Shown one piece after another: positions 8,490 to 10,952 of a stretch of 12,125 nucleotides of DNA. Under the pieces are notes generated by a model. That model had not been told where the DNA came from and searched no databases. It saw nothing but the letters and a program-made list of their open reading frames with translations. The DNA comes from Thoreauomyces humboldtii (Eukaryota > Chytridiomycota > Chytridiomycetes > Spizellomycetales > Powellomycetaceae). Made by a program: the position numbers and the translations under genes. The DNA is taken from contig JADGJA010000703.1 of the NCBI GenBank assembly GCA_027596035.1, positions 1 to 12,125 of the forward strand, written 5' to 3'. Each line of letters begins with the position of its first letter. Position 1 is the stretch's first letter.

Positions 8490-10952
8490 TCAACCGCTGG
8501 ACACAGATCTGAACCGTTCCTGATTTAACTCGCTGACGAGCTTCTCCAGTTCTCTGCACCTCTCCTCGCTCTCGTCCAAAGCCTTCTCCATGGCACCGAA
8601 CCCGTCCAAGAGGACCTCGAGATCCACCTCGAGGTCCTCCTCGCCGTGGAGAGCTCCCCGCAGCATGGAGAGAATGTGGTGCGTCTGGGCCTTTGTCGGG
8701 GATCGAGGTAGGTAAGGTCCGTCGCTGGGCGACAGGGGCGCATTCTCGTTGTCGGCGGTGCGATGGTGGTTGTAGGAGTTTGACTTTCCGGTCGCGACGG
8801 AGATGGGTGGGGGAAGACGGGCGTGGTGGGTCGACAGCAGGGTGTTTCCGGTTCCGTTCGCTTGAGAGGGAGTACCCGGCGCGGATCCTGGGATCGGGGA
8901 GAGGAGCGTTGACGCTGCTCCTGCACCTCCTTTCTTCGTGGCGGTGCTGGGAGGGGGAGCTGCCCGAGGAGGAGGAGGAGCCACGAACTGGAGCGGTGAG
9001 GGGATGGACGGTCTGGCGGCTGTCAGGTGAGCCGGAGGTTGGATGGATGGAGGTGGGGGGAGGATGCCAGCCAGGATGGGTTTCGGAGACGGCTGATGCT
9101 GCTGTTGGGATGGTTGCCCTGGTTGCTGGGCGGCGACAACATGGGGCACCGCTGTCCGAACCACGGGTGAGACTGTTGCTGCGACTACCGCTGCCACCGT
9201 AGGGGCCGCTTTCCCTTCCGAAGCTGGTAGCGGCTGCGACACCGCCCCCGGCAGCGAGGATGGAGGGATGGATGCAACGCTGCCTGTCCGAGCCACCAAT
9301 CCGACGGGTTTCGGTGTGGATGGCGGCGGCGGCACGAACTTTTCCGACGTGACGGATTTTCTCGCTTTACCGTTCCCCCCTCCCACAGCTCCACCTCGTG
9401 CTGCAGTTCTCTTCCTCGAAGGAGATGCCGACGTCGTCGACGGCTCCCTTTTGGCCGTCATGCTCGACACGGACTGGACCGAGAAGGATCTCGTGATCTG
9501 AGGATGCTCCGTCCCAGGAGCCAGGATAGATACTCTTCTCATATCGGGTCCGACAGCAGCCGACGGATCCGTGGATGCAGCCCTCGAATGAGGCGCCGGG
9601 TTCCTGAACGCCGCCAGATCCTCTACAGGTCCACCGTTCGGGAGGGGAGGCGGTGGGGGTACCACCATGCCATCGTTGAACTTTTTGATCATGTCCGCGA
9701 TCTCGACGTTGCCGCTCAAGGTGGCGAGCTGGGCCGCCGTCTGACCGCTGAGGTTTGTTCGTTCCCGATCGCAGCCTCTTAACACCAACCACTTCGCGCA
9801 CTCCTTGGCGTTCCGAGTGGCTGCCACGTGAAGCGGTGTGTTTCCGACCGCGTTGACCGCGTTCATGGAGCATCCTGCGTCGATTAGGAGGGAGGCGATG
9901 GCTTCGTGGTTGTTGTAACAGGCGACGTGAAGCGGCGCACGACCAGATTCGTCGGTCGTCTCCGTGGTTGCTCGCGCCAGGAGAAGACGTAACACCGCTT
10001 CTGGATGCGAGTTCTGTGTTGCGTAGAACAGAGCTGGGAGATTGTTGCCGTCTGGACAGTCCACCCAGGCGCCTGCAGATAGCATCAGCTGTGAAAAGGA
10101 ACACGAAGGAGAGCTCCGTCAGTCCATATGTGCGTTCCACTAGAGCCGTTCGACAGAGCTTTTTCCTAACCTGCAGAGGAAGCAGCTTATTGTGTAGCGC
10201 TGCGACATGCAATGGCGTCTTCCAGCCATCCTTCTTGCCAAGTCGATAGTCCAGTAGCGCCCCCTGCTCGATAAGCGTCGCGACCATGTCTCGATCATTG
10301 TTCAAGACAGCGACGACCAGCGGTGTGTCTGAAGTGAGTTACTCTGTCAGAATCGGACTTACAGAAGGAAGGAGGCTTGCACTATACAAACCTCCGCTCT
10401 CTGTGTAAAAGTTCGGGTCTATGCCCTTCATTCCTCGTTCGCGGACTTTGTCAACGTGGCCCTTCACGACGTCCTCCGCAAACTTTTTCTGCTTCTTCTT
10501 GCTGTTGAGAGAGGGTGATCCACCAGAAAGATCGGGTTCACCCGACGTAGCGGTCGTGAGCACTCTGTATTTCGGAATAAACTCCAGAAGCACCTGCAGC
10601 AACCCGTCCGTCAGAGCCACGACCAGATACAGGACCGCTCGAATGTTTACAGACGATTACAACTCACACTGTTCTCAGTAACGTAGGACCCCAACGGACT
10701 CTTTTCATCGAGGAATCGTCCAGCGGTAGGCAGGTAAAGTCCATAGTTGATAGCGTCCTCGATGCCACTTGCCATCTTTCCCATGATGCGGTGCTTGATG
10801 GCCCAAAGTGTTTCACGAGAAAATGCCTTGATAGCTGTGATGCGTTCCTGGGAAGGGAGAGAGATTCGTAGGACGAGCGCTGGTCCCTTGTCTTCCTCCG
10901 TCGTAGGGGTGCCGGAACGAGGCGAGGGTGCGGTTGTTGATGTTGCCGACAT
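8490..10952 (-). CDS. SHANK-like scaffold: SPN domain plus ankyrin repeats
   Basis: Exons 10952-10668, 10593-10392, 10328-10171 and 10088-8490 join in frame into 747 residues. Introns are 74, 63 and 82 nt. The start is AGCC-ATG with an in-frame TGA just upstream. Residues about 24-106 form a ubiquitin-like SPN domain, with VLRISLP, EDAINYGLYLP and GRFLDEKSPL matching the equivalent stretches of SHANK1-3. Ankyrin repeats fill about 128-353: KKFAEDVVKGHVDKVRERG and DPNFYTESGDTPL open the block as in SHANK, repeats at 264, 297 and 330 are exactly 33 apart, and NLSGQTAAQLATLSGN with IKKF close it. Then comes a disordered Pro/Ser/Ala tail with PPPPPLP (about 359-365) and VPPPPSTPKP, and an acidic coiled coil (about 700-740). 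SH3, PDZ and SAM domains are absent. In animals the SPN binds Rap/Ras and packs on the ankyrin domain. A cortical or actin-linked scaffold role here is inference. Alternative: another Ub-like-plus-ankyrin family. Confidence 0.85.

What the first reader, a model, noticed from the sequence alone, without database searches (positions are those of the whole stretch)
8490..10952. SHANK-like SPN-ankyrin protein in a fungal genome
The spliced product has a ubiquitin-like N-terminal domain and about seven ankyrin repeats in the same order and nearly the same spacing as animal SHANK/ProSAP scaffolds. Several signatures align directly: DAINYGLYLP, GRFLDEK, KKFAEDVV, DPNFYTESG, QTAAQLATLSGN and IKKF. Arg29 falls where SHANK3 Arg12 contacts Rap/Ras, as I recall. 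SHANKs are known to me from animals and close unicellular relatives, not as a characterised fungal family. If orthologous, the SPN-ANK module predates the animal-fungal split and was built on before postsynaptic use.
Basis: partly seen in the sequence, partly recalled or inferred. Interest (0 to 1): 0.88.

Follow-up and report, generated by a model that had tools for sequence, protein, structure and literature searches.

The report
Fungal sister of animal SHANK scaffolds
A flagellated fungus carries a protein whose front half is built like the front half of SHANK, an animal protein that organises nerve synapses, suggesting that this part of the synapse toolkit is older than the split between animals and fungi.

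Summary
The minus-strand gene at 10952-8490 (four exons) encodes 747 residues, identical to a deposited protein of the chytrid Thoreauomyces humboldtii: a SHANK-type ubiquitin-like SPN domain, seven ankyrin repeats, a proline-rich, probably disordered middle and C-terminal helices.

It is not a full SHANK: no SH3, PDZ or SAM in 15 of 15 fungal proteins scanned, no Homer motif in 18 of 20. It is best filed as the fungal branch of an SPN-ANK family on which SHANK was built. Most likely role, not shown: a Ras-responsive cortical actin scaffold. Paper searches listed no description.

The parts
8490..10952 (-). whole gene, spliced 747-aa SPN-ANK protein (HKX48_008016)
10668..10952 (-). exon 1, residues 1-95 (most of SPN)
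10594..10667 (-). intron 1, 74 nt, phase 0, after residue 95, inside the SPN-coding region
   Evidence: deposited protein agrees
10392..10593 (-). exon 2 (end of SPN, linker, first ankyrin repeat)
10329..10391 (-). intron 2, 63 nt, phase 1, inside codon 163
10171..10328 (-). exon 3 (ankyrin repeats)
10089..10170 (-). intron 3, 82 nt, phase 0, after residue 215
8490..10088 (-). exon 4 (rest of the ankyrin repeats, proline-rich region, C-terminal helices, stop)
10561..10883 (-). SPN ubiquitin-like domain, residues 24-106 (interrupted by intron 1)
9669..10500 (-). seven ankyrin repeats, residues 127-355 (interrupted by introns 2 and 3)
8706..9668 (-). proline-rich region, residues 356-676, low model confidence and taken as disordered, PPPP motifs at 468, 559 and 586
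8490..8705 (-). C-terminal helical region, residues 677-747 (helices 681-695, 705-745), possible coiled coil
10866..10868 (-). Arg29, aligned with SHANK3 Arg12 (Ras site)
   Evidence: role of Arg12 from PMC8766471, passages
10836..10838 (-). Thr39, aligned with SHANK3 Lys22
   Evidence: that Lys22 belongs to the Ras face is recalled, the paper was not held
10746..10748 (-). Asn69, aligned with SHANK3 Asn52 (SPN-ANK interface)
   Evidence: PMC8766471, passages
10414..10416 (-). Pro155, aligned with SHANK3 Pro141 (SPN-ANK contact)
   Evidence: PMC8766471, passages

Best explanation
A fungal member, apparently single-copy, of the SPN-ANK family, sister to animal and protist SHANK and inherited from the common ancestor of fungi and animals. 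Homology of both domains and the shared closed SPN-ANK arrangement are shown by calculation. Inferred, in falling order of confidence: SPN folds back on the ankyrin block as in SHANK3; the outward face of SPN binds GTP-loaded Ras-family GTPases (about 0.5); the ankyrin groove, proline-rich middle and free SPN tie the protein to the cortical actin machinery of the crawling, wall-less zoospore, with Ras-GTP availability shared with talin (about 0.4); the C-terminal helices multimerise the scaffold in place of the SAM domain (about 0.4).
For: Sequence: single stretch to SHANK3 6kyh over 25-359, E 9.5e-47; SPN alone 1.3e-8. Holozoan SPN profile: 14 of 15 chytrid-group proteins at 40-68 bits, 5 of 5 Blastocladiomycota at 10-18, and 2 of 206 other proteins give any row, at most 0.4. 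Holozoan ANK profile: 20 of 20 fungal at 180-231 bits, best of the 206 others 131. hhalign chytrid SPN to holozoan SPN 99.8%, E 1.5e-27. Structure: SHANK3 entries are the top hits for the Thoreauomyces model and for the Allomyces model. Contact residues: Asn52 in 24 of 24 session rows with a letter there, Pro141 in 24 of 26. Trees. Co-resident talin and Ras/Ral genes. SHANK3 SPN binds Ras/Rap, the open form binds F-actin, and talin competes with SHANK3 for Rap1 (PMC8766471, PMC10861631, PMC11928058; passages).
Against: No binding, localisation or expression data. Thr39 replaces the Lys22 equivalent in this species; the Arg12 equivalent is Lys in P0013 and Lys or Thr in the four Blastocladiomycota rows. 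Gln106, a CaMKII contact in SHANK3 (PMC8766471), is Asp here and not conserved. Both AlphaFold2 alignments held holozoan SHANK rows (A3: 5 of 20, A4: 5 of 18) and AlphaFold2 has probably seen SHANK3 structures, so the models are not independent of SHANK. Blastocladiomycota SPN scores are low (10-18 bits) and Pfam FERM_f0 finds nothing in the four scanned. C-terminal heptad windows beat 95% of shuffles in only 9 of 13 proteins, and the best window of the window's own protein spans a predicted break between helices. Of the 11 ankyrin outgroup rows four have long branches and two odd composition.
Confidence: 0.7

Rival explanations
1. Horizontal transfer of an animal or protist SHANK fragment into fungi, later trimmed.
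For: Alie and Manuel 2010 (PMC2824662, passages) searched five fungi and placed Shank's origin in the choanoflagellate-animal ancestor; the named fungal holders seen here come from two phyla only, though the listings were capped.
Against: The fungal side is one group apart from animals and protists (100/100 unrooted; 99/97 rooted on other ankyrins); both phyla are recovered separately (chytrid group 97/98, Blastocladiomycota 100/99). A transfer would have to predate their split.
Confidence: 0.1
2. Independent fusion: a talin F0-like or other ubiquitin-like domain joined an unrelated ankyrin protein in fungi.
For: Talin F0 is a relative of SPN and the genome carries talin; the ankyrin fold is common (93 Ank_2 matches in this genome, a lower bound). 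hhalign gives chytrid SPN 68.8% to the talin F0, so the folds are related.
Against: SPN profile: 2.6 bits for the same genome's talin F0 against 40.4 for this protein. The ANK part alone groups with SHANK ankyrins (98/99). Linker, contact residues and domain geometry match SHANK3.
Confidence: 0.03
3. Same family, but a generic ankyrin adaptor without Ras or actin function in fungi. (This overlaps the best explanation on identity and differs on function.)
For: No functional data; Lys22 equivalent lost in this species, Arg12 equivalent changed in Blastocladiomycota; no SH3, PDZ or SAM and mostly no Homer motif.
Against: Arg12 equivalent is Arg in 12 of 13 chytrid-group rows with a letter and Lys22 is Lys in 12 of 13; the SPN domain is kept across two phyla while the middle diverged.
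Confidence: 0.35

Closest known systems
Animal and protist SHANK/ProSAP (SHANK3; PDB 5g4x, 6kyh, 6kyk)
   Same: SPN then seven ankyrin repeats in the same geometry; Arg12, Asn52, Leu68, Pro141 equivalents; proline-rich region downstream.
   Different: No SH3, PDZ or SAM in 15 of 15 fungal proteins scanned; no PPxxF Homer motif in 18 of 20; C-terminal helices instead of SAM.
Talin FERM F0
   Same: Related ubiquitin-like fold; Pfam FERM_f0 matches both.
   Different: No F1-F3 or rod; the SPN profile scores the genome's own talin F0 at 2.6 bits; ankyrin repeats follow instead.
Ankyrins and other long ankyrin-repeat proteins (ANK1/ANK2, ANKRD52)
   Same: Ankyrin solenoid.
   Different: No SPN found by the profile; repeats of the 206 other session proteins score at most 131 bits with the SHANK ANK profile against 180-231 for fungal members.

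Membership tests
SHANK/ProSAP | N-terminal SPN ubiquitin-like domain | tested here: met
   Pfam FERM_f0 below cut-off for this copy, above it in 7 of 15 fungal proteins scanned
SHANK/ProSAP | seven ankyrin repeats directly after SPN, packed as in SHANK3 | tested here: met
   (predicted model, SHANK rows in its alignment)
SHANK/ProSAP | SH3 and PDZ domains | tested here: not met
   0 of 15 fungal proteins scanned with Pfam, none in the precomputed lists of the other 5; found in holozoan P0055 and P0203, PDZ alone in P0064
SHANK/ProSAP | C-terminal SAM domain (not in all metazoan SHANKs, PMC2824662 passages) | tested here: not met
   0 of 15 fungal proteins scanned; present in P0055
SHANK/ProSAP | Homer-binding PPxxF motif (definition recalled) | tested here: not met
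   absent in this protein, present in 2 of 20 fungal and 4 of 6 holozoan rows
SHANK/ProSAP | cortactin-type motif (pattern recalled) | tested here: inconclusive
   my pattern matched 0 of 26 rows, the holozoan controls included
SHANK/ProSAP | binding of Ras/Rap-GTP through SPN | not testable with these tools
   Arg12 equivalent kept, Lys22 equivalent is Thr39
SPN-ANK family (fungi plus SHANK) | SPN and SHANK-type ANK of common descent | tested here: met
Talin | FERM F1-F3 and rod after F0 | tested here: not met
   one search lists only ankyrin families and FERM_f0

The most novel reading that the evidence does not exclude
The SPN-ANK module was already a working Ras-gated cortical actin adaptor in the last common ancestor of animals and fungi. 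Zoosporic fungi keep the unadorned ancestral form, and SHANK is that form with SH3, PDZ, the Homer motif and SAM added on the animal-choanoflagellate line; fungi without zoospores would have lost it (their lack of it is a prediction, not a result here).
Probability: 0.45. Interest if true: 0.82.

Novelty: new variant of a known kind. Interest (0 to 1): 0.72.

Why it matters
Published work places SHANK's origin in the ancestor of choanoflagellates and animals (PMC2824662, passages). A fungal sister moves the SPN-ANK half back to the opisthokont ancestor and shows which parts were added later. It also gives a synapse-free, genetically tractable setting, Spizellomyces punctatus (P0007, SPPG_04154; transformation in PMC7213984, passages), in which to ask what SPN-ANK did before synapses; three SHANK3 sites mutated in autistic patients (Arg12, Leu68, Pro141; PMC10861631, passages) are conserved in it.

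Tried and rejected
The protein search restricted to the SPN region of P0009 found ten proteins, the query included, all chytrids: too few shared words to reach further. The alignment search with one full row and ten trimmed rows was meant to give an SPN profile, but it scored the whole first row, so general ankyrins fill the list; it still added four Blastocladiomycota proteins and a Capitella SHANK. The listings show 120 of 683 hits and 120 of 1825, so absence from other fungi (Batrachochytrium, Mucoromycota, Dikarya) is not shown.

The own-genome search for WH1/Homer domains rang nowhere, controls included, and says nothing. Spectrin repeats: two weak hits under the cut-off. Lilja et al. 2017 (PMC5386136) is not held, so residue roles come from later papers and the role of Lys22 is recalled. 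Intron positions could not be compared with animal SHANK: no animal genome is searchable here and supplements were closed. My cortactin pattern matched no row, holozoan controls included. A regular-expression capture of the segment after the ankyrin repeats missed many rows and no count is drawn from it. Contamination and talin-fragment readings were rejected: the protein nests among Powellomyces and Geranomyces (100/98) and the same genome's talin F0 scores 2.6 bits.

Paper searches on fungal SHANK. Listings were seen for all, and passages only for the papers cited. One search (shank + chytrid + ankyrin) returned 0; two searches returned 6 and 5 papers whose titles look unrelated; the others listed 20 of 133, 20 of 25, 20 of 234, 25 of 92 and 15 of 66.

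Full report
WHAT IS THERE. The window is contig C666 of a 20.7 Mb assembly. Splicing the minus strand with three short GT-AG introns gives 747 residues from 10952 to 8490, identical to deposited protein HKX48_008016 of Thoreauomyces humboldtii, a chytrid of Spizellomycetales, Powellomycetaceae. A search of the genome with the protein finds only this locus at high score; the next match is 44 bits in the ankyrin region, so it is single copy in this assembly as far as that search sees.

ANATOMY. AlphaFold2 gives a confident beta-grasp domain (block means 88-94 over residues 21-100), seven helix pairs at 127-351 (block means 86-97 over 131-350), low confidence over most of 367-676, taken as disorder, and helices 681-695 and 705-745. 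Pfam reports ankyrin families well over cut-off and FERM_f0 under it (16.7 bits, cut-off 26.9). Of 15 fungal proteins scanned, FERM_f0 passes its cut-off in 7, is reported below it in 3 and is absent in 5 (P0014, which starts after the SPN, and four Blastocladiomycota). A FERM_f0 search of the whole genome rang only at talin and missed this gene.

HOMOLOGY TO SHANK. Residues 1-363 match SHANK3 6kyh in one stretch, 25-359 to 7-344, E 9.5e-47, 162.9 bits. Eight multi-repeat ankyrin or designed proteins rank above it on summed score; in the three whose stretch tables were printed no single stretch exceeds 50.0 bits. SPN alone: SHANK3 at 1.3e-8, then ubiquitin at 0.009. SPN plus the first repeats: SHANK3 first, E 2.7e-19. 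A profile of the six holozoan ANK regions gives all 20 fungal proteins 179.6-231.3 bits and the best of the 206 others 131.2. The same genome's talin F0 scores 2.6 bits with the SPN profile. hhalign: chytrid to holozoan SPN 99.8% (E 1.5e-27), Blastocladiomycota to holozoan 96.3%, Blastocladiomycota to chytrid 98.1%; to talin F0 68.8, 12.5 and 0.3% for chytrid, holozoan and Blastocladiomycota. The fungal set was itself found by similarity to the window protein or its relatives, and the other proteins came from the same searches, so these numbers tell SHANK-type from other ankyrin proteins; they are not a random sample.

RESIDUES. One search aligned 26 session rows with SHANK3. SHANK3 Arg12: Arg in 12 of 13 chytrid-group rows with a letter (Lys in P0013), Lys or Thr in the 4 Blastocladiomycota rows, Arg in 5 of 5 holozoan rows with a letter. 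Lys22: Lys in 22 of 23 session rows with a letter; the exception is the window's own protein (Thr39). Asn52 is Asn in 24 of 24 with a letter. Pro141 is Pro in 24 of 26 (Ser in Nowakowskiella, Leu in Blastocladiella britannica). Changes at Asn52 and Pro141 open the SPN-ANK contact, and Arg12 lies in the Ras site (PMC8766471, passages). Gln106, a CaMKII contact, is not conserved.

WHO HAS IT. Named holders: Thoreauomyces, Powellomyces, two Geranomyces species, Fimicolochytrium, two Spizellomyces, Phlyctochytrium arcticum, Gaertneriomyces, Nowakowskiella, Synchytrium microbalum and a Lobulomycetales genome, and Blastocladiella emersonii, B. britannica and three Allomyces; that these last two genera are Blastocladiomycota is recalled. 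P0075, also unnamed, falls on the fungal side at an unstable place (75/63 with Blastocladiomycota, 94/80 with chytrids). P0053, P0055 and P0064 are EukProt records without an organism in the listing; I call them choanoflagellates from recall of the record-name style. [quoted passage not shown]

DESCENT. Tree of 26 SPN-ANK rows (P0004 and P0123 left out as near copies): holozoans against the fungal side (with P0075) 100/100, chytrid group 97/98, Blastocladiomycota 100/99, animals 100/97, protist SHANKs 98/93. ANK-only tree with 11 other ankyrin proteins as outgroup: SHANK-like family 98/99, fungi with P0075 99/97, holozoans 97/93. The group order follows the organisms, as vertical descent predicts. 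The sampled animals (three named rows, plus P0085) are one group apart from fungi, so a transfer from within them is not supported; a transfer older than the chytrid-Blastocladiomycota split is not excluded. Ankyrin trees are weak instruments; four outgroup branches are long and two outgroup rows have odd composition.

WHAT IS MISSING. No SH3, PDZ or SAM in 15 of 15 fungal proteins scanned, nor in the precomputed lists of the other five. PPxxF, the Homer motif as I recall it, in 2 of 20 fungal (both Allomyces) and 4 of 6 holozoan rows; P0013, P0014 and P0015 are short and perhaps incomplete. Instead, chytrids share proline motifs just after the ankyrin repeats and about 100 residues on, and C-terminal helices; the best heptad window there beats at least 95% of 300 shuffles in 9 of the 13 fungal proteins tested, so a coiled coil is plausible, not shown.

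HOW IT MAY WORK. In animals SPN binds active Ras and Rap, the open form binds F-actin, and SHANK3 and talin compete for Rap1 (PMC10861631, PMC8766471, PMC11928058; passages only). This genome has talin (F0, FERM, PTB, talin middle), a Ras whose best solved matches are R-Ras2 and KRas and a Ral-like GTPase; I did not look for Rap among the other matches. Basal fungi keep focal-adhesion scaffold proteins such as talin, in varying sets, but lack integrin (PMC5042518, passages). Spizellomyces zoospores crawl with cortical and pseudopod actin (PMC7213984, passages). I therefore propose a Ras-responsive scaffold of the zoospore cortex. Every functional step is inference.

NOVELTY. Alie and Manuel 2010 searched Batrachochytrium, Saccharomyces, Neurospora, Ustilago and Rhizopus and dated Shank to the choanoflagellate-animal ancestor, noting that its N-terminal region had no other relatives in their search (PMC2824662, passages). 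The listings showed no paper on a fungal SHANK in this open library; most lists were cut, and subscription journals are mostly not covered. I rate it a new variant of a known kind.

Noticed in passing
window 3794-4279, minus strand: Exon of a glycoside hydrolase family 15 (glucoamylase-like) gene (Pfam 109.8 bits); the frame 4280-5251 minus next to it has no Pfam match.
   Followed up: partly
window about 6211-8243, plus strand: Gene rich in FG-type repeats, nucleoporin-like by eye, no Pfam match for 7194-8243; it runs tail to tail with the SPN-ANK gene.
   Followed up: no
window 1742-1816 minus and 11962-12046 plus: tRNA-Ile (aat) and tRNA-Gly (ccc), the latter 85 bases long and so perhaps with an intron.
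   Followed up: no
protein P0075 (unnamed source, 658 aa): SHANK-type ankyrins (218 bits) with a very divergent N-terminal domain (4.3 bits) and proline-rich tail; deep, unstable place near fungi. Its organism could change the dating.
   Followed up: partly
window 10836-10838 (Thr39): This species alone among the 23 session rows with a letter lacks Lys at the SHANK3 Lys22 position.
   Followed up: partly
Allomyces P0122 at 481 and P0124 at 479: PPLPF strings matching the Homer PPxxF pattern, in 2 of 3 Allomyces proteins; possibly chance in a proline-rich region.
   Followed up: no
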